Shown here: positions 8,744 through 17,805 of the stretch, in pieces
Position numbering within the stretch: position 1 is the first letter of the stretch
How the letters are laid out: each line of letters opens with the position of its first letter
Source: Clavibacter sp. A6099
GTDB taxonomy: Bacteria; Actinomycetota; Actinomycetes; Actinomycetales; Microbacteriaceae
NCBI RefSeq assembly: GCF_021919125.1
Contig: NZ_CP083439.1
Span: 2,480,001-2,544,000 of the forward strand
Direction of reading: 5' to 3'
DNA length: 64,000 nucleotides
The notes under the pieces: generated by a model
The model's database searches: none
What the model saw: the letters and a program-made list of their open reading frames with translations, nothing else
Told to the model about the DNA's origin: nothing
Translations under genes and position numbers: made by a program

Positions 8744-9685
8744 CTAGTTCGCGCCGCTGGTGTTGATGCCGCCGTTGACGCCGTTGGGGTAGAACCCGCC
8801 CTTCGTCACGGCCTTGTTGTTCAGGTACACGATGTTGAGGACCTGACCCGTGGTGCGGCTGAACGCGATGCCGTTCGCGTCGGTCGGCACGAGGTTCGCG
8901 CCGCCCGAGATCGTGATGCCCTGGTCGAGGTCCGTGGACCCGTCGAGGGAGTCGCGGGCGTTCGAGATCGCGTTCGTGGGAGCCGCGAGGCCCTTCGCGA
9001 ACAGCGACGTGCGGATGATGCCCGCGTGGTAGGCCTCGACCGCGAGGATGCCGGCGGCCGCCTCGAGGTAGGTCTTGTTCGTGATGAGCGGGGCCGCGCC
9101 CTTGTAGGCGGTGACTCCGACGTCCTCGAACACGAACGACGCGAGCAGGAAGTTCTCGTCGCTCGCGAACGCGTCGAACTTCTCGCCCGCCTTGATGAGG
9201 CCGGCAGCCTGGGCCGCGGCGGAGAAGGCCGCGTCCAGGTCGATCGCGGGACGCGCGACCTTCGCCGAGCCGAGCGCAGAGCGCAGGAACTTGACGTGGG
9301 CCTTCTCGTCCTGGGCGATCTCGCGGGCGTACTCGCGGATGGCGCGGTCCTTGAACTGCACCTGGCGACCGCCCGTGACGCCGCCGGCCGTGCCGACGCC
9401 GGAGATGTCGTTCGGGACGAGGCCCGCACCCGTGGAGGCGCGCAGGTAGAACTCGGCCTCGAGGTACTCGAGGTTCAGCGCGAAGTTGAGGACGGCGAGG
9501 TCGGTCGCCTGGCCGGAGTCGGCCTCGGCCTGGGCGTCGGCCGCCTGGGCTCCGGTCGCGGGGATGAGGGCCGCGGCGCCGACGCCGAGTCCCGCGACGC
9601 CCGCGGCGCTGAAGAAGCGACGACGGTCCAGCGGCGACTGCGCGCTCCGGTCGATGGCCTGGGTGATGAACTTCTTGTCGAACAT
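8744..9685 (-). CDS. Tat-exported ferritin-like domain protein
   Basis: A 313-residue protein beginning with a twin-arginine signal (D20-R-R-R-F-F, then a hydrophobic stretch ending A-Q-A), so it should be exported folded. The mature part is a Ferritin_2-type four-helix domain. Acidic helix motifs include [18 protein letters not shown] and [15 protein letters not shown], and a later helix holds EAYHAG, which are the usual carboxylate/His metal positions. A Gly/Asn-rich tail follows. Relatives are secreted ferritin-like proteins in actinobacteria of unclear role, perhaps metal or peroxide handling. AAGGGAG lies eight bases before the ATG. Converging with the permease across a 38-bp hairpin, it appears to be a single-gene unit. 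Confidence 0.82.
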
Positions 9686-9870: not shown

Positions 9871-12513
9871 TCAGGTCGGGATGACCTTGAACAGGAACTT
9901 GCGCTTGACCATGAACCAGATCACCGCGAGCACGAGGGTGTGGATAGCTGTCCCCTGCCAGAAATTGGACCTGTCGAGGAACGGCAGGCTGCCCACCAGC
10001 AGCACGAAGAACACGTGGACGATGAACACGTAGAGGCTCGCGGATCCGAGCGGCGTGTAGAACCAGCCGAACGCGCGGTCCACGGGCTTCCACACTCGGG
10101 TGAGGAACGTGTACGCGACCACGAGCATCAGCGCGAGGTCGATGAGGCGGCCGGGCTGGAGGAACGTGCGCTGGTACATGGACTCGTACAGCGACGAGTA
10201 GAGGCCGTCGGGCACGCCGGGGATCGCGACGCCGAACGTGTGCCCGGCCCAGAGGACCGCGAGCCCGCCCGTGTAGGCGACCAGCAGGATCGTCACGAGC
10301 ACGCGGCCGACGCGGCCGGTGAGGGCGCGCGTGATCTGCCTGCGGTAGTAGCCGATCACCATGCCGTTGAGGAACGCGACCTGCCAGGTGAGCAGCGGGA
10401 ACACGTCCTCGAACATGGACGGCAGCACGCGGATGTCGAACTGCGCGTTGAGCACGTACGCGGCCCAGCTGACGATGAGCACGACCCACCACATGCGGCG
10501 GCGGAGCAGCCACACGATCGCGGGGACGAGCAGGGTGAGCACCACGAACAGGCCCATGATGTTGAACACCCACGGACCCATGCGGATCAGCAGCAGGTCG
10601 CGGATCGCGTACCAGGGCGGCGGGTAGTCGAGCAGGCGCGCGCCGTTCGGGTAGAGGTCGTAGACCTGACCCGTCGTGACCTTGCCGTCGGCGCCCGTGC
10701 CGCGGTCGGTGAACGTGGTGATGACGTCGGTGTTCAGGAACGGCACGAACGTGAGCGCGAAGACGATGACGACCACCGCGATCGCCACGATGTACTGCTT
10801 GAAGGCTCGCCGGAGGATCGAGACGAGCGCCTTCGCCTCGCCGAACTTCTTCACCGCCATCGGGTAGACCATGCCGAGCACCAGGCCGGAGAGCAGCACG
10901 AACATCTCGGCGCCCGTGATGGCGCCGATCGCGTTGATGCTGACGAAGGAGTACGGGCTCGCCACCTCGATGTGCGTGACGACCACGACGACGATGATCC
11001 AGCCGCGGAAGAGGTCCAGGCGGCGGTCGCGAGGCGAGTTCTCGTCGGGGTAGCGCCAGCCGGGCTTGAGCCGCCCGATGGGGCCGGAGATCGCGAACAG
11101 CAGCAGGAGCACGACCGCGCAGAGCACGATCCAGCCCATCTGCTCGTCCTCCGGCGATCCCGGGTCGCGGTACTGCGCGGTCGCGACGTTGGCGCGCTCC
11201 TGGTCGAAGACCTGCGTGACGGCGCCGAGGGTGGCGGTCGCCGGATCCAGGTGCGCGAGCAGGGCGGACGCGATGGCAGGAGCCCCCGTGGCCCGCCAGT
11301 CGATGACCGCGCCGTCGGCCTCCGCCTCCGTGCGCTGGACCTCGCGCCACACCACCATGCCGATGCCGGGGTGGGCGGCCCGGATGTCGGCGGAGAGCAC
11401 CTGGTCCCACCACGCGCTCTTGATGTCGATCTCGCTCGCGCCGTCGGTGCGGGCCGGGTCGTAGAGGGCGCCCGTCTCGATGACGGCGGGCTTGCCGGTG
11501 CCCTCGATCCACTCGGCCGCGAAGTCGCGCCCGGCGCCGCCCTGGTCGGCGTACCCGTACTGGCCGGCGAGCTCGCGGGCGAACTTGCCGTCCTCGGGCA
11601 CCACGTTCTTGCCGAACTCCTGCTGCGGGATCACCTCGCTGCCCAGGTAGTCCCGCGTGGGCTGCCCGATCGTGAAGTCCTGCTCCGCGCCGAAGTGCGA
11701 CGCGGACAGCCCGACCCAGTCGACGGCCTCGTCGCCCGGGTAGTAGGGCCGGTAGGCGTCGTCGTCCACGTCGACGCGGCCGTTGCCGTCGGTGTCGAGC
11801 TCCGCGATGGACCGGGTGCCGGACGCGTCCGTGAGCCCGTCGGCGGATCCGAACGGGTAGCCGGCCGCGTACGCGGGCGACCACACGGTGACGGCGCCCG
11901 CGTCGGATGCGTGCACGGCGTCGGCCACCTGGCGGAACGCGGTGACGTACGCGGTGGGCTGCTGGCCCCACGGGGTCCACGAGCCGTTCATCTCGGGGGC
12001 GAACCGCACGAGCGCGCGGGAGTCGTAGCGCTCGCGCAGCGCCTCGAGCCGGCCCATGAGCGCGGTCGCGTCCGCCGCGGTCAGGTCGGCGAGCGGCTTC
12101 GTCGGCTCGAGCGTGAGGAAGAGGAGCGATCCCTGCTGCGCGGCCTGCTGCGCGAACTGGTCGAGGTAGGTGACGTCGTCGGATCCGAGCGGGTAGCGCA
12201 CCGACTGGCCGAGCACCGCCGGGGTCGCGCCGAGGCGGTCGGCGTAGCTCTGCGCATCGTCGGCGGTCCAGTCGATGATGCCGCCGAACCACGGCGCGGC
12301 GGGCGCGCGGGTGAGGTCGACCTCGTCCGCGGGTGCCGCGGGCGCGGCCGCCCGGGGCGATGCAGCCCGCGGCTCGGCAGGCGCCGCAGGCACGGCGAGC
12401 GCCGCCGTCGCCGGGACGACCGCGATGGCGAGCGCCACCATGGCCGCGACCCAGCCGCCGAACCGTCCCCGCGTGCGCCCGCCCCCGCGTGCACGCATCC
12501 CCCCGTCGCGCAT
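9871..12513 (-). CDS. GH26-like hydrolase fused to OpgC-type acyltransferase
   Basis: The 880-residue product joins two enzymes. After a signal/anchor helix (about 21-42) comes a GH26-like domain (about 72-420). RFAPEMNGSW supplies the probable acid/base E174, KPAVIETG supplies a probable nucleophile E346, and a loop at 240-251 has the D-x-D-x-N-G spacing of EF-hand/dockerin calcium sites. A membrane helix (461-477) leads into an OpgC/acyltransferase-3 domain beginning RRLDLFRGWIIVVVVVTHIE (497-516) with about ten spans. GH26 enzymes cleave beta-mannans or related beta-glycans. OpgC adds succinyl groups to periplasmic glucans. The ATG overlaps the stop of the kinase gene (ATGA). It is the last gene of the operon and plausibly trims and acylates the polymer made by the upstream GT2. 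Confidence 0.8.
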   Translation of the reverse strand: MRDGGMRARGGGRTRGRFGGWVAAMVALAIAVVPATAALAVPAAPAEPRAASPRAAAPAAPADEVDLTRAPAAPWFGGIIDWTADDAQSYADRLGATPAVLGQSVRYPLGSDDVTYLDQFAQQAAQQGSLLFLTLEPTKPLADLTAADATALMGRLEALRERYDSRALVRFAPEMNGSWTPWGQQPTAYVTAFRQVADAVHASDAGAVTVWSPAYAAGYPFGSADGLTDASGTRSIAELDTDGNGRVDVDDDAYRPYYPGDEAVDWVGLSASHFGAEQDFTIGQPTRDYLGSEVIPQQEFGKNVVPEDGKFARELAGQYGYADQGGAGRDFAAEWIEGTGKPAVIETGALYDPARTDGASEIDIKSAWWDQVLSADIRAAHPGIGMVVWREVQRTEAEADGAVIDWRATGAPAIASALLAHLDPATATLGAVTQVFDQERANVATAQYRDPGSPEDEQMGWIVLCAVVLLLLFAISGPIGRLKPGWRYPDENSPRDRRLDLFRGWIIVVVVVTHIEVASPYSFVSINAIGAITGAEMFVLLSGLVLGMVYPMAVKKFGEAKALVSILRRAFKQYIVAIAVVVIVFALTFVPFLNTDVITTFTDRGTGADGKVTTGQVYDLYPNGARLLDYPPPWYAIRDLLLIRMGPWVFNIMGLFVVLTLLVPAIVWLLRRRMWWVVLIVSWAAYVLNAQFDIRVLPSMFEDVFPLLTWQVAFLNGMVIGYYRRQITRALTGRVGRVLVTILLVAYTGGLAVLWAGHTFGVAIPGVPDGLYSSLYESMYQRTFLQPGRLIDLALMLVVAYTFLTRVWKPVDRAFGWFYTPLGSASLYVFIVHVFFVLLVGSLPFLDRSNFWQGTAIHTLVLAVIWFMVKRKFLFKVIPT

Positions 12514-12962
12514 CAGCCGCGCAGCCTGACCAGCCGCCAGCGGTTGCTGCCGTCGGTGCGCTCGTAGGTGAGGTCGTCGAGGACCGCCTGGGCGAGCGCC
12601 AGCCCGCGGCCGCTCTCGCTGAGGTCGTCGGGCATGGAGACGCGCGTCAGGTCGACGACGGCGGGCTTCCCGTCGTCCTCGAACAGCGCCACGATGCGGT
12701 CGTGCTGGCAGATCACGGTCATGGTGAACGTCACGGGGTATCCCGCGCGCTCCCCCACCGAGACGCCGTGCTCGACCACGTTGCCCGCGATCTCCACCAC
12801 GGCCGTCTCGAACAGCATCCGCTCCTCGTCGCTCACGTCGGACGCCTGGTCCCAGACCGCGGCGATCACGGCGTGCACCGCCGCGAGGCTCTCGTCCACC
12901 GCGGGCAGCGTGACGTTGGCGCGCACCGGCGGCGCGTGGTGCGTCATGCCCTCATCGGTCAC
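12513..12962 (-). CDS. RsbW-type anti-sigma/serine kinase (HATPase_c)
   Basis: This 149-residue protein is a single GHKL ATPase domain of the RsbW/SpoIIAB class. The N box is ETAVVEIAGNVVEHG, the G1 box is LFEDDGKPA and the G2 box is SGRGLALAQAV. Such kinases phosphorylate a STAS antagonist and bind either it or a partner, classically a sigma factor. The STAS gene lies immediately upstream and overlaps this start by 11 bases, and the stop overlaps the ATG of the GH26-OpgC gene. The GTG at 12962 is used; an ATG five codons later is also possible. No sigma factor gene is adjacent, so the target is unknown and may be a protein of this operon. Confidence 0.85.
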   Translation of the reverse strand: MTDEGMTHHAPPVRANVTLPAVDESLAAVHAVIAAVWDQASDVSDEERMLFETAVVEIAGNVVEHGVSVGERAGYPVTFTMTVICQHDRIVALFEDDGKPAVVDLTRVSMPDDLSESGRGLALAQAVLDDLTYERTDGSNRWRLVRLRG

Positions 12963-13290
12963 GGAACACTCCCTCGGGCGACTCGTGCACCGTCAGCACG
13001 CGGTTGAGGTTCGTGAGCTCCAGGACCGCCTTCACCTGCGCGTTGGGGCGCGCGAGCCGGAGGTCACCTCCTGCCTGACGAGCGCGCTTGAGGCCGGACA
13101 CGAGGGCGCCGAGGCCGGAGGAGTCCATGAAGTCGGTGCTGCCGAGGTCGACGACGACGAATGGCCGTCCGCCGTCGATGACCTCGGTGACGATGGCGGT
13201 GAGCTGGCGCGCGGAGACCATGTTGAGGCGACCGGTCGGCGTGACGACGCTCACGTGCGTGCCCTGCTCGTTGACTGCGATGTCGATCAT
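12952..13290 (-). CDS. STAS-domain anti-sigma factor antagonist (RsbV/SpoIIAA-like)
   Basis: A 112-residue single STAS domain. The phosphorylatable serine motif is present as DFMDSSGLGALVSGLK, preceded by the strand VVVDLGS. Unphosphorylated STAS proteins bind RsbW-type kinases and free the kinase's client. The PP2C phosphatase that would dephosphorylate it is encoded two genes upstream and the kinase directly downstream, so the complete switch is in one operon. The ATG overlaps the stop of the GT2 synthase (ATGA), tying its translation to the synthase. Length and motif are standard. Confidence 0.88.
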   Translation of the reverse strand: MIDIAVNEQGTHVSVVTPTGRLNMVSARQLTAIVTEVIDGGRPFVVVDLGSTDFMDSSGLGALVSGLKRARQAGGDLRLARPNAQVKAVLELTNLNRVLTVHESPEGVFRDR

Positions 13291-15278
13291 GCGTCCTCCT
13301 TGGCCGGCGTGAAGCCCCGGTAGCGGGCCGCACGGATGATGATGCTGAAGATCGCCAGGTCGAATACGACCCAGGCGAGGTTGGTGAACGTGCCGAGCGG
13401 CGTCGCCTGCCCGACCCCGAGGCGCAGCAGTCCGATCGCCGACGCGACGATGAGCGCGCCGATCACGTAGAGCTGCGGCTTCACGAGGTCGTACCGCGGC
13501 TTCCCGCTCGCGGCGCGGACCTTCGGGGTGACCGCGAAGTCGAGGGGCTTGCGGAAGAACACGTTGGCCACGGCCGTGGTGACCGAGGAGATCCACACCG
13601 GGAACAGCGCGAGCGAGTACTGCTGGCCCCGCCAGGTGCGCTTGCCGCGGCCGACCACCGCGAACAGGAGCTGGTTTACGAGCAGGAACGGGATCAGCCG
13701 GATGAAGAAGTCCGTCGAGATCGCCTGCACCGGCAGCACGCCGAAGACGAGGTAGATGATCGGCGCGGCCACGTAGACGATCGCCGTGAAGCCGGAGAAG
13801 TAGCTCCACATCGTCGCGAAGTACATGAGGCGCTGCGGGATGGAGAGCGCCTTCTGCAGCAGCGGGTTCTCGCGGAAGAACACCTGGATCGTGCCCTGCG
13901 CCCAGCGGAGCCGCTGCGTGAGCATGGTCGGCAGGTCCTCCGGCGCCAGCCCGTACGCGAGGACCTCGTCGTGGTACGCCGACTTCCAGCCGAGCCCGTG
14001 CAGGCGCATGCAGGTTGCCATGTCCTCGGTGACGGAGATGGTGGCCAGCGGCATGATCGACTGCGCGTCGTCGTCGCGGTGCACGTCGATGTCGCGGACG
14101 ATCGCGCGCACGGCGTCGAGCGCCCCGAGCGGCGACCAGTCGCGCTGCGCGAGGCGCGTCATGGCGCTCTCGTCGACGAGCGAGACCGCGTCGCGCTCGG
14201 CGGAGTGCCGTCCGGCCAGCGCGGCGATCTCGGCGAGGTCCGCGTTCAACGCGGCCATGTCGTCCTGCACCATGCGGGCGGCGATGGAGTCGACGCGCTT
14301 CTGGAAGCGGTAGGTCACGTCCGCCAGCGCCTGGCCGCGGCGGAGCTCGGCGCGGGCGCGGCGCACGTCGTAGGCGACGTCGTCGAGCGCCTTGCGCAGC
14401 TCCTGCTGGTCGGGCTCGAGCTCCTCGCGGGCCTTGTCGATCACGTCGCCCGCCGTCCGGAGCGCGCGGAACACGGTGATCTCGATGTCCGTCACGTAGC
14501 GCGAGACGCCGAGGAGCATGAGGGCCTCGCGGCGGAGGATCGCGTTGGAGCCGCAGAAGAACGCCGCGTTCCAGCCGTCCTTGCCCTGCTGGATGGGGCC
14601 GTAGAACAGCGGCGCCTGGCTGCCGAGCGGATCCGCGTCCGGCACGTTCACGAACACCTGCGGCGTCTGCACGAGCGCCATGCGCCGGTCGTCGAAGTAG
14701 CCGAGCGTCTTGTCGAGGATCTCGGGTGTGGGCACCTGGTCGGCGTCGAGGATGAGCATGAACTCGCCCTCGGTCGTGAGCAGCGCGTTGTTGAGGTTGC
14801 CGGCCTTGGCGTGGCGGGCGCGACCCGACCAGTCGGCCGAGCGGGTGATCCAGCCGATGCCCTCCGCCTCCGCGAGGTCGCGGAGCTCGGTGCGGTTGCC
14901 GTCGTCGAGCACCCACGTCTTGTGCGGGTAGGTGATGCGCTGGGCGGCGCGCGCCGTCTCCATCACGAGGTCGAGCGGCTCGTTGTACGTCGCGATGAAC
15001 ACGTCGACCGTGAGGCCCGGCTGCGGCGCGGGCGGCTTGGGCCGGTCGCGGGCGCGCCACATCGTGAGCCCGAACAGCAGCGAGTCGATGAGGCTGTACG
15101 TCTCCGCGAGCACGAGCGGGATCGCGATCCAGAGCGCCTCGGTGTTCACCGAGAACAGCAGCCGCCAGATGATGTAGTTCAGGCCGAGGATCGCCGTCAC
15201 CACGGCCAGCAGGCGGATGAACGCGAACCGCAGCGGCGACCTCCCCGTGGTCGGTGCGCGGTGCGTCGAGCGGCTCAC
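13287..15278 (-). CDS. Processive GT2 polysaccharide synthase (cellulose-synthase-like) with large insertion
   Basis: The 663-residue membrane glycosyltransferase has two N-terminal spans, a cytosolic GT-A domain with D-D-G (125-127), D-A-D (178-180), T-E-D (417-419) and QRLRW (455-459), then about six C-terminal spans and VTPKVRAASG (584-592), as in BcsA/CelA-type synthases that polymerise and extrude beta-glycans from UDP- or GDP-sugars. No PilZ domain is present, so c-di-GMP control of the BcsA type is not expected. Between CGSNAILRREAL (242-253) and the T-E-D motif lie about 150 extra residues, mostly charged helix, which ordinary synthases lack. The GTG start overlaps the PP2C stop (GTGA) and the stop overlaps the STAS start. 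The polymer identity is unknown. Confidence 0.85.
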   Translation of the reverse strand: MSRSTHRAPTTGRSPLRFAFIRLLAVVTAILGLNYIIWRLLFSVNTEALWIAIPLVLAETYSLIDSLLFGLTMWRARDRPKPPAPQPGLTVDVFIATYNEPLDLVMETARAAQRITYPHKTWVLDDGNRTELRDLAEAEGIGWITRSADWSGRARHAKAGNLNNALLTTEGEFMLILDADQVPTPEILDKTLGYFDDRRMALVQTPQVFVNVPDADPLGSQAPLFYGPIQQGKDGWNAAFFCGSNAILRREALMLLGVSRYVTDIEITVFRALRTAGDVIDKAREELEPDQQELRKALDDVAYDVRRARAELRRGQALADVTYRFQKRVDSIAARMVQDDMAALNADLAEIAALAGRHSAERDAVSLVDESAMTRLAQRDWSPLGALDAVRAIVRDIDVHRDDDAQSIMPLATISVTEDMATCMRLHGLGWKSAYHDEVLAYGLAPEDLPTMLTQRLRWAQGTIQVFFRENPLLQKALSIPQRLMYFATMWSYFSGFTAIVYVAAPIIYLVFGVLPVQAISTDFFIRLIPFLLVNQLLFAVVGRGKRTWRGQQYSLALFPVWISSVTTAVANVFFRKPLDFAVTPKVRAASGKPRYDLVKPQLYVIGALIVASAIGLLRLGVGQATPLGTFTNLAWVVFDLAIFSIIIRAARYRGFTPAKEDA

Positions 15279-16471
15279 GCGCGGCTCACGGCGAGGACGG
15301 TCACGTCGTCGAGCGGCGTGCCGGCTGAGGCGAGGATGCGGACGCGCTCGACGAGCGCGTGCACGCCGCCTGCCTCGGTGACCAGGCGGCCGATCGACGC
15401 GAACGCGGGCGCGCTGCCGCCGAACATGTCGAAGAGGCCGTCGCTGAAGGTGACGAAGGTGTCGCCGCGCCCGAGCACGACGTGGCGCTCCTCCCAGCGG
15501 TGGTCGACGTCGATGCCGACCGGCAGGTCGCTCGTGTCCAGGTGGGTGACGCGGCCGTCCGGGTGGACGACGATGGTCAGCCCGTGTCCCGCGTCGGCGT
15601 AGCGGAGGAGGCCGGACGCCTGGTCGAGGTGGCCGTGCTGCAGCGTGACGAAGGATCCCGTGCGGTCGAGGTCGGCGTCGAGCGAGCGCGCCGCGTCGGT
15701 GACCATGAGGCCCGTGTCCTCGAGGACGCCCGCGCCGTAGCGGTCGGCGGTGCTCGCGATGCCGCGGAGGACGGCGCGGACGGTGGCCGTGAGGATCGCC
15801 GCGCCCGTGCCCTTGCCCATCACGTCGGCGATCGAGAAGCGGATGCCGGATGCGGTGCGCTCGTAGTCGTAGAAGTCGCCGCCCACGACCTGCGCGGGCA
15901 CGCACACGGCGGCGATGTCGTAGCCGGGGATCTCGACCTCGGCGGCCGGCAGCAGCGCCATCTGGACCGCCTGGGCGCGCTCCATCTCCGCGTTCGCGAT
16001 GAGCTCGCGCTGCGCCCACTCGGCGAGCTCGGCGAAGAGCGCGAGCTGGCCGGCGTCGAGACCGCGCGGCTCGACGTCGTACAGGCAGAAGGTGCCGACG
16101 ACGAGGCCCTCGGGGTCCCGCAGCGGATGACCGGCGTAGAAGCGGATGTGGGGCTCGCCCGCGACGGTGGGCAGGTGCCGGAAGACGGGGTGGTCCCGCG
16201 CGTCCTCGACGACGAGGATCCGCTCCTCGCGCACCGTGGTGTCGCAGAAGACGGTGCTGATCGGCGTCTCCGAGAGCTCGGCGCCGGCGCACGACGCGAA
16301 CCACATGCGGTCGTGGTCCGCGAGGCCGATGGTCGAGAGCGGCACGCCGAACGCCGTGCGAGCCAGGCGCGTGACCCGGTCGAAGCGCTCCTCGGGAGGT
16401 CCGTCGAGCAGTCCCAGGGCCTCCACGGCACGCTGCGACGCGCTCGACCGTGCGTCCTCGATCAGACTCAT
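15275..16471 (-). CDS. GAF-PP2C serine phosphatase (RsbU/SpoIIE-like)
   Basis: The 398-residue protein has an N-terminal GAF sensor domain (about 20-160, including ISTVFCDTTVREERILVVED) joined by a helix to a SpoIIE-type PP2C phosphatase with the metal-binding motifs VVGGDFYDYE, SIADVMGKGTGAAIL and YADAGHG. Such proteins sense a signal through GAF and dephosphorylate a STAS antagonist. It heads a five-gene coupled operon containing its likely STAS substrate and the matching kinase. I prefer the ATG at 16471, which follows a G-rich GAGG-containing stretch, over the ATG at 16504 (11 codons longer). The GAF ligand is not predictable. Confidence 0.85.
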   Translation of the reverse strand: MSLIEDARSSASQRAVEALGLLDGPPEERFDRVTRLARTAFGVPLSTIGLADHDRMWFASCAGAELSETPISTVFCDTTVREERILVVEDARDHPVFRHLPTVAGEPHIRFYAGHPLRDPEGLVVGTFCLYDVEPRGLDAGQLALFAELAEWAQRELIANAEMERAQAVQMALLPAAEVEIPGYDIAAVCVPAQVVGGDFYDYERTASGIRFSIADVMGKGTGAAILTATVRAVLRGIASTADRYGAGVLEDTGLMVTDAARSLDADLDRTGSFVTLQHGHLDQASGLLRYADAGHGLTIVVHPDGRVTHLDTSDLPVGIDVDHRWEERHVVLGRGDTFVTFSDGLFDMFGGSAPAFASIGRLVTEAGGVHALVERVRILASAGTPLDDVTVLAVSRA

Positions 16472-16566
16472 CCCCGCCCCCACCTCGCCGACGTGGACCC
16501 CCATCCACGACCCGATTCCACGGGCGCGCTCAGCTTACGTGCCCGGATCCATAGGGGACGTACTAA

Positions 16567-16650: not shown

Positions 16651-17805
16651 ATGGCATCAGAACGGCGACCGGAGCTGCCCTACCTCGACGGCATGCGGGG
16701 CGCCGCCGCCCTCGCCGTCGTCGCGTTCCACGCGTTCCTCTACACCGGGCTCAGCGGCCAGGCCTGGCGGGACCTGCCGCTCCTCGGCTGGATCACCGGC
16801 TACGGCTACCTCGGCGTGCCCGTCTTCATCGTCCTGTCCGGCTACGTGCTGATGCTCCCCGTCGCCGGCCGCCCCGGGCTCGACCTCCGGCACGGCACGG
16901 CGACCTTCCTCCGGCGCCGGGCCAGGCGGATCCTCCCGCCCTACTTCGCGGCCCTCGCGCTCAGCCTGCTCATGGCGCTCGCGATCCCCGTGATGCGCGA
17001 CGGCGCCGGCACCGAGTGGGAGAGCGCGGCGCCCGCCACCCCCGCGGGCATCGTCTCCCACGTGCTCCTGCTGCAGGACCTCTCCCCCGCCTGGGTCAGC
17101 CAGGTGAACGCGCCGCTGTGGAGCGTCGCCGTGGAGTGGCAGATCTACTTCCTCATGCCGCTGGTGCTGCTGCCGCTCTGGCGTCGGTGGGGCGGGCTGC
17201 CCGTCGTCGCCCTCGCCACGGTCGCGATGACCGGCGCGTCCCTCGCCGGCTTCGCCCCGTGGGCCTGTCCCTGGCTGCTCGGCCTCTTCGCCGCCGGAAT
17301 GCTCGCGGCCGAGCTCACCGTCACCGCGCGCCCGCGCTGGGCGTCCGACCGGCTGCTCCTCGCGGTGGCCGTGGGCGCCGCGGCCGTGCTGCTCCTCGGG
17401 ATCACCGTGCTGCAGGGCAGCGTGTGGGCCGCGGAGCTCGTCGCCGGGGCGGGCTTCGCGTCCCTCCTCGCGTGGGCGGGCGGGCGCACCATGGCCGGAT
17501 CCCGTCCCCGCGCGCTCGGCGCATTCGTCACCCGGCCGGCGCAGCGGCTCGGACTCGTCTCCTACAGCGTGTACCTCGTGCACAGCCCGTTCCTCGCGCT
17601 CGGGAACCTCCTGCTGCTGCCCCTCGGGCTGCCGACCGCCGCGCACGCCGCGGTGATGCTGCTGGTCGTCGCGCCGCTCGCGGTCGCGGCCGGCTTCGGC
17701 TTCTTCCACCTCGTGGAGCGGCACTTCCTCAACACACGGCAGGTGCACGTGACGGAGGCGGCGGTTCCGGATGCGGCGCGCGTCGTGCCCCGGCCCGAGG
17801 CCTGA
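16651..17805 (+). CDS. Acyltransferase family 3 membrane protein
   Basis: A 384-residue protein with about ten spans. The N-terminus YLDGMRGAAALAVVAFHAF carries the catalytic-type histidine of acyltransferase-3 enzymes, and the next helices include GVPVFIVLSGYVL and the R-R-R-A-R-R-I-L-P-P-Y-F segment typical of OafA-type O-acetyltransferases. These move acetyl or other acyl groups onto surface glycans. It diverges from the exopolysaccharide operon, so modification of that polymer is a reasonable inference. A TAGCTT box (16622-16627) and the G-rich GGGGGAT before the ATG provide expression signals. Confidence 0.85.
   Translation: MASERRPELPYLDGMRGAAALAVVAFHAFLYTGLSGQAWRDLPLLGWITGYGYLGVPVFIVLSGYVLMLPVAGRPGLDLRHGTATFLRRRARRILPPYFAALALSLLMALAIPVMRDGAGTEWESAAPATPAGIVSHVLLLQDLSPAWVSQVNAPLWSVAVEWQIYFLMPLVLLPLWRRWGGLPVVALATVAMTGASLAGFAPWACPWLLGLFAAGMLAAELTVTARPRWASDRLLLAVAVGAAAVLLLGITVLQGSVWAAELVAGAGFASLLAWAGGRTMAGSRPRALGAFVTRPAQRLGLVSYSVYLVHSPFLALGNLLLLPLGLPTAAHAAVMLLVVAPLAVAAGFGFFHLVERHFLNTRQVHVTEAAVPDAARVVPRPEA

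What the first reader, a model, noticed from the sequence alone, without database searches (positions are those of the whole stretch)
9871..16471. Exopolysaccharide operon with a built-in partner-switching signalling module and no sigma factor
Five genes are joined by overlapping start and stop codons: GAF-PP2C phosphatase, GT2 synthase, STAS antagonist, RsbW-type kinase, GH26-OpgC fusion. All three signalling parts have intact motifs and two of them sit between the enzymes. PP2C/STAS/kinase switches usually control a sigma factor, but none is present. Vibrio fischeri SypE-SypA is a known case of such proteins controlling polysaccharide production. By analogy, this switch may act directly on the synthase or the hydrolase. 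The synthase lacks a PilZ domain, so another control is needed.
Basis: partly seen in the sequence, partly recalled or inferred. Interest (0 to 1): 0.78.

Follow-up and report, generated by a model that had tools for sequence, protein, structure and literature searches.

The report
Kinase switch paired with polysaccharide synthase
A cellulose-synthase-like enzyme in many actinobacteria travels with a three-protein on/off switch that normally controls gene-reading factors, which suggests that the switch controls the enzyme itself.

Summary
The five overlapping genes are real. By its nearest named relatives the organism is a Clavibacter. GT2 followed closely by STAS and kinase is not a one-strain oddity: 65 of 80 loci from named genomes and 22 of 22 other GT2-bearing genomes of an even class-wide draw. 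In that draw of 393 genomes the kinase family (122 bits or more; next best 56) occurs in exactly the 23 genomes with the synthase. All 13 genomes searched for loci lacking the adjacent pair still carry it elsewhere. A SigB/F/G-type sigma factor is not needed: 55 of 70 synthase-bearing genomes of the family show none, and 39 of those 55 keep STAS and kinase at the locus. Nine genomes keep only the kinase beside the synthase. The synthase has no PilZ domain and no long C-terminal tail, but a ~150-residue helical insertion beside its active site. Best reading: a partner switch dedicated to the synthase protein, with the kinase the likelier direct partner. Binding is untested; a c-di-GMP route is not excluded.

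The parts
15275..16471 (-). GAF-PP2C (SpoIIE/RsbU-type) phosphatase, 398 aa; an in-frame ATG at 16504 is also possible
   Evidence: Pfam SpoIIE 94.9 bits, GAF 58.1 bits; sequence
13287..15278 (-). GT2 processive synthase, BcsA-like fold, 663 aa; DDG125, DAD178, TED417, QRLRW455, gating-loop motif FAVTPK581; no PilZ, about 11 residues after the last helix
14052..14507 (-). about 150-residue helical insertion (residues 258-409) between the FFCGS and TED motifs, absent from E. coli and Rhodobacter BcsA; candidate docking site
   Evidence: gap in alignment to BcsA chains; present in all 177 aligned relatives, shorter in the six GT2b paralogues; helical in models
12952..13290 (-). single-domain STAS antagonist, 112 aa; D56-S57-S58
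   Evidence: TIGR00377 75.4 bits, over its cut-off; DSS in 114 of 115 aligned loci, one gap
12513..12962 (-). RsbW-type serine kinase, 149 aa; E57, N61, D96, G118-R119-G120
   Evidence: Pfam HATPase_c_2 46.7 bits; residues conserved
9871..12513 (-). fusion of an N-terminal GH26-like domain (about 11224-12306) and a C-terminal OpgC acyltransferase (about 9904-11031)
   Evidence: OpgC_C 173 bits; GH26 by PDB match E=1.4e-5; below the Pfam GH26 cut-off

Best explanation
The operon makes and regulates an extracellular beta-glucan-like polymer. GT2 polymerises and exports it; the GH26-like/OpgC protein trims and acylates it. PP2C, STAS and the kinase form a partner switch whose dedicated target is the synthase protein. 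In the resting state the kinase holds GT2 inactive, most likely through the helical insertion next to the active site, and keeps STAS phosphorylated. When the GAF domain senses its signal, PP2C dephosphorylates STAS; STAS captures the kinase and the synthase is released. In effect GT2 takes the place of the sigma factor. Shown: gene order, motifs, genome-wide co-occurrence, occurrence without SigB/F/G, and retention of the kinase alone beside GT2 in nine genomes. Inferred: the binding, its site, its sign, the chemistry of the polymer and the signal.
For: STAS and kinase close downstream of GT2 in 65 of 80 named-genome loci and 22 of 22 class-draw genomes other than the window's own. Kinase family in 23 of 23 GT2 genomes and, at that score, in 0 of 370 others (Fisher p about 1e-37; genomes not independent). 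Kinase family present in 13 of 13 genomes searched for loci without the adjacent pair. Near GT2 only PP2C, STAS, kinase and a GH-family gene recur; no other neighbour family is in more than 13 of 104 loci. 39 genomes have STAS and kinase at the GT2 locus but no SigB/F/G match. Nine genomes of one genus keep the kinase alone after GT2; in six of the seven printed the two genes share GTGA. They are nested among full-module relatives, and the kinase has dN/dS about 0.28. GT2 lacks PilZ and a BgsA-like tail. The GT2b paralogues, with no kinase hit at the locus, lack about residues 345-382 of the insertion. Insertion distances track kinase and STAS distances beyond the core (partial r 0.20 and 0.28; core control 0.09 and -0.03).
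Against: No binding, phosphorylation or polymer data. In G460, G765 and G605 STAS follows GT2 but no kinase was found at the locus. STAS elsewhere in the kinase-only genomes could not be searched. The covariation does not favour the kinase over STAS, and its core control against the kinase also reached p 0.04. Outside the family draw most GT2 genomes do have a SigB/F/G-like factor: 39 of 41. The insertion has no recognisable fold beyond a helical bundle. The kinase G1 Asp96 is lost in 14 of 112 aligned relatives. In 4 of the 13 genomes the kinase belongs to another linked GT2 copy. The window's genome has a second STAS-kinase-PP2C-PP2C cluster of the same kinase family with no GT2 in the stretch.
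Confidence: 0.55

Rival explanations
1. STAS, not the kinase, is the direct partner: unphosphorylated STAS binds and activates GT2, and the kinase only switches it off, as proposed for SypA and shown for SiaC on a cyclase.
For: Known non-sigma outputs act through the STAS-like protein (passages). STAS is better conserved than the kinase in the rows aligned (45-61% identity to the window against 29-43%). Three genomes have STAS without a kinase hit at the locus, and three of five GT2b loci of the family draw have a weak STAS-like neighbour.
Against: Nine genomes keep the kinase beside GT2 with no STAS hit at the locus. All 13 genomes searched for loci without the pair keep the kinase.
Confidence: 0.25
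2. The switch acts through a diguanylate cyclase elsewhere, and c-di-GMP then activates GT2, as in Sinorhizobium Bgr/BgsA.
For: That pathway controls a related PilZ-less GT2 making mixed-linkage glucan (passages).
Against: A GGDEF/GGEEF motif was found among called neighbours in 1 of 104 loci. GT2 has only about 11 residues after its last helix, against a 139-residue c-di-GMP-binding tail in BgsA. Genome-wide cyclases were not searched.
Confidence: 0.12
3. Classical anti-sigma system: the kinase controls a SigB/F/G factor encoded elsewhere, and the operon is merely one of its neighbours or targets.
For: The window's genome has one such sigma factor, and 39 of 41 GT2 genomes have one.
Against: 55 of 70 GT2 genomes of the family show none, and 39 of those keep STAS and kinase. 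At 122 bits or more the kinase family never occurs without GT2 in the 393-genome draw.
Confidence: 0.05
4. The target is the GH26-like/OpgC protein or another enzyme of the operon.
For: It is the fifth gene of the operon here, and a GH-family gene follows the kinase in 40 of 104 loci.
Against: A GH-family gene is near only 69 of 104 loci and its position varies; an OpgC domain was found in 38 of the first 85 stretches scanned. The GH domain follows a signal-peptide-like start, so it is probably outside the cell (inference).
Confidence: 0.03

Closest known systems
Sinorhizobium meliloti BgrSTUWV partner switch controlling mixed-linkage beta-glucan made by BgsA
   Same: A partner switch upstream of a PilZ-less, BcsA-like GT2; a GH26-like domain here hints at a similar polymer (passages; Baena et al. 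seen only as cited there)
   Different: There the STAS protein acts on a cyclase and c-di-GMP binds a 139-residue tail of BgsA. Here no cyclase is near, the tail is absent, and a helical insertion is present
Vibrio fischeri SypE-SypA
   Same: STAS and kinase/phosphatase control polysaccharide-dependent biofilm, with no sigma target known (passages)
   Different: SypE joins kinase and phosphatase in one protein; the target of SypA is unknown in those papers. Here three separate genes are joined to the synthase gene
Pseudomonas aeruginosa SiaABCD
   Same: Direct control of an enzyme by an unphosphorylated switch protein (passages)
   Different: SiaC is a DUF1987 protein and the enzyme is a diguanylate cyclase
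Bacillus RsbU/RsbV/RsbW-SigB
   Same: The same three protein families and motifs (motif roles recalled)
   Different: No sigma factor at the locus, and in many genomes none of that type
BcsA cellulose synthase
   Same: Fold and catalytic motifs
   Different: No PilZ, 150-residue insertion, 351.6 bits against an equivalog cut-off of 699.1

Membership tests
RsbU-RsbV-RsbW-type partner switch | SpoIIE-type PP2C phosphatase with sensor domain | tested here: met
RsbU-RsbV-RsbW-type partner switch | single-domain STAS with phosphorylatable serine | tested here: met
   (that this serine is the one phosphorylated is recalled)
RsbU-RsbV-RsbW-type partner switch | HATPase_c_2 kinase with catalytic Glu/Asn, G1 Asp and GRG | tested here: met
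RsbU-RsbV-RsbW-type partner switch | phosphorylation of STAS by the kinase and binding swap | not testable with these tools
   needs purified proteins
anti-sigma system of a SigB/F/G factor | cognate sigma factor encoded with the module or always in the same genome | tested here: not met
   none among recurrent neighbours; no match at E 1e-40 in 39 genomes with STAS and kinase at the GT2 locus
Bgr-type switch (cyclase as target) | diguanylate cyclase gene with the module | tested here: not met
   1 of 104 loci has a GGDEF/GGEEF motif among called neighbours
Bgr-type switch (cyclase as target) | a cyclase elsewhere in the genome under STAS control | not tested
BcsA cellulose synthase | D, D, TED, QxxRW catalytic motifs and BcsA fold | tested here: met
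BcsA cellulose synthase | equivalog score and PilZ domain | tested here: not met
   351.6 of 699.1 bits, no PilZ
GH26 | Pfam PF02156 over its cut-off | tested here: inconclusive
   window 13.4 bits, cut-off 20.2; relatives L043 20.4 and L083 54.0; PDB match E=1.4e-5

The most novel reading that the evidence does not exclude
An RsbW-type kinase that binds a cellulose-like synthase instead of a sigma factor: the helical insertion of the synthase plays the part of the sigma factor, so a gene-expression switch has become a protein-level switch for polysaccharide synthesis across the class.
Probability: 0.4. Interest if true: 0.82.

Novelty: new variant of a known kind. Interest (0 to 1): 0.68.

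Why it matters
Processive synthases are best known to be switched by c-di-GMP. A widespread c-di-GMP-independent switch built from anti-sigma parts would show how such modules gain enzymes as targets. It would also give a testable case for the open question of what STAS/kinase switches without a sigma factor act on, as with SypA. The conserved neighbours and an insertion with a short conserved motif make the test direct.
Full report
What is there. Five - strand genes overlap head to tail: GAF-PP2C, GT2, STAS, RsbW-type kinase and a GH26-like/OpgC fusion. The motifs looked for in STAS and kinase are intact. Over 115 loci below 95% identity, STAS Asp56-Ser57-Ser58 is kept in 114, one being a gap; kinase Glu57 is kept in 111 of 111, Asn61 in 111 of 112, Gly118 and Arg119 in 114 of 115 each, Gly120 in 115 of 115, and the G1 Asp96 in 98 of 112. 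That these are the catalytic and phosphorylated residues is recalled from the Bacillus proteins.

The synthase. GT2 has the BcsA fold and its catalytic motifs, but 351.6 bits against an equivalog cut-off of 699.1, and no PilZ. The last predicted helix ends 11 residues before the C-terminus, so the 139-residue c-di-GMP-binding tail known from BgsA is missing (passages). Alignment to BcsA chains breaks cleanly: residues 257 and 410 of GT2 match adjacent residues of E. coli BcsA. The roughly 150 residues between them, just before the TED motif, are predicted helical, with parts of low confidence. Plant cellulose synthases carry their class-specific region at about this place (recalled). The insertion evolves faster than the core but has invariant or near-invariant residues: Asp340, Asp347, Leu348, Arg379, Ser382, Pro383, Ala386, Ala405.

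Conservation of the order. The scan of named genomes found 464 relatives, of which the best 80 were kept. In 65 of these 80, STAS lies within 600 bases and kinase within 1,200 bases downstream of GT2 on the same strand. They include Nocardioides, Aeromicrobium, Arthrobacter, Rhodococcus, Gordonia, Williamsia, Geodermatophilus and Kitasatospora. Some of the 80 come from one genome or from near-identical ones. In an even draw of 393 genomes of the class, 23 including the window's own have GT2. In all 22 others STAS and kinase follow it. PP2C lies directly before GT2 in 19, after the kinase in 2, and was not found in 1. Among called genes near 104 loci, only PP2C, STAS, kinase and a GH-family gene recur; no other family is in more than 13 loci. 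The GH gene is near 69 of 104 and follows the kinase in 40. The gene caller is a simple G+C method and missed PP2C in some Clavibacter loci where the profile search found it; the 104 loci include some genomes twice.

Swappable input. In some Arthrobacter and related loci the GAF domain of the phosphatase is replaced by a response-regulator receiver (Pfam in L034 and L113; by sequence in L102 and L173). GT2, STAS and kinase stay in place, although in these four the kinase has lost its G1 motif.

Co-occurrence. A kinase-family profile (18 rows) searched in the same 393 genomes gives 122 bits or more in exactly the 23 GT2 genomes; the next best hit is 55.9 bits. Fisher p is about 1e-37, but related genomes are not independent: GT2 is in 8 of 123 genera. 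At least nine rows of the profile come from genomes of the draw; the other GT2 genomes were held out. At most ten first-look candidates per genome were scored. Of the 80 named loci, 15 lack the adjacent pair. I submitted 14 of these; L080 is not held, so 13 genomes were searched, and all 13 carry the kinase family (L081, not submitted, is from the same strain as L074). In eight of them, the Arthrobacter agilis group, it sits in a separate PP2C-STAS-kinase cluster; in one (G449) it lies on the other strand beside GT2; in four (G450-G453) it belongs to another linked GT2 copy, in some with further copies. Two more genomes of that call, G454 and G421, have a linked set.

Sigma factors. The window's genome has one SigB/F/G-like factor (227.5 bits, cut-off 234.35) with sigma regions 2, 3 and 4. 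Of 41 GT2 genomes first examined, 39 have such a factor; G203 shows only a primary-type factor and G235 shows none of any kind. In a draw of 398 genomes of the family, 83 have GT2 at E 1e-100 or better; 13 are of the window's genus, and I examined the other 70. Only 15 of the 70 have a SigB/F/G match at E 1e-40, a limit that excludes the primary factors but could also miss a very divergent SigB/F/G. Of the 55 without, 39 have STAS and kinase at the GT2 locus, 35 in the exact order. So the module does not need that kind of sigma factor. A role on the primary sigma factor is not excluded by this, but would not explain why the kinase family is absent from the 370 genomes without GT2.

Exceptions that inform. 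Of the other 16 among the 55, nine genomes of one genus have GT2 followed directly by the kinase, with no STAS hit; three more genomes of that genus keep both. In six of the seven examples printed the two genes share GTGA; in the seventh the GT2 frame ends early. No PP2C is seen in the longer stretches L281 and L334. The nine form one clade nested among relatives with the full module, and their kinase is under purifying selection (median dN/dS 0.28, against 0.56 and 0.36 in two comparison sets with STAS). This points to the kinase as the direct partner of GT2, unless STAS is encoded elsewhere, which I could not search. Five genomes carry only a divergent GT2b paralogue with no kinase hit at the locus; three of them have a weak STAS-like neighbour. 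GT2b lacks about residues 345-382 of the insertion: one evolutionary contrast that fits a docking role for that part. Against the kinase reading, G765 and G605, and G460 among the genomes with sigma factor, have STAS but no kinase at the locus.

Covariation. After correcting for core distances, insertion distances correlate with kinase (r 0.20) and STAS (r 0.28) distances over 114 loci, against 0.09 (p 0.04) and -0.03 for a core control. The effect is modest and does not single out the kinase.

Polymer. The GH-like domain matches GH26 Endoglucanase H in the PDB (E=1.4e-5); that this is a lichenase is recalled. With a BcsA-like synthase and an OpgC acyltransferase this suggests an acylated beta-glucan; inference only. 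Passages of one paper on Clavibacter EPS clusters name Wzy-type genes and do not mention this operon.

Known relatives. The Sinorhizobium Bgr switch controls mixed-linkage glucan through a cyclase (passages; the primary paper seen only as a reference). SypE-SypA controls biofilm polysaccharide with an unknown target (passages). SiaC controls a cyclase directly (passages). A review mentions an Anabaena protein that joins STAS to a glycosyltransferase (passage). A switch with the synthase itself as partner would be a new variant of this kind.

Verdict. Dedicated coupling of the switch to the synthase is strongly supported by comparison (my estimate 0.85). Direct action on the protein is likely but unproven, with the kinase favoured over STAS as contact.

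Noticed in passing
L036:6530-10015 (G000:C1, about 2.997-3.000 Mb): The same genome has a second STAS-kinase-PP2C-PP2C cluster of the same kinase family (140.5 bits) with no synthase hit in the 14-kb stretch; its target is unknown.
   Followed up: partly
L281, L334 and seven related loci (unnamed genus g165): GT2 followed directly by the kinase with STAS (and, where seen, PP2C) missing at the locus: a natural reduced form of the system.
   Followed up: partly
L182, L329-L333: A divergent GT2b paralogue with a shortened insertion; L331-L333 have a weak STAS-like neighbour in which the DSSG motif reads TASG, TAAG or TPSG.
   Followed up: partly
L034, L102, L113, L173 (Arthrobacter and relatives): The phosphatase's GAF sensor is swapped for a response-regulator receiver domain; the kinases of these loci have lost the G1 Asp.
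   Followed up: partly
L301, L306, L307, L310, L327 (unnamed genus g203): A STAS-PP2C-kinase set lies before GT2, and STAS, with or without a kinase hit, follows it, as if the module were doubled.
   Followed up: no
window 16651-17805 (+): An Acyl_transf_3 acyltransferase gene is divergent from the operon start; it could modify the same polymer.
   Followed up: no
window 8744-9685 (-): A ferritin-like (Ferritin_2) protein gene lies directly downstream on the same strand.
   Followed up: no
L145:4436-6142: The only SigB/F/G-like sigma gene of the genome faces an ANTAR-domain gene; none of the HATPase_c_2 hits lies next to it.
   Followed up: partly
G235 (1.8 Mb genome): Carries GT2-STAS-kinase, yet no sigma region 3 was found at all, not even of the primary factor; probably an assembly or search gap.
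   Followed up: no
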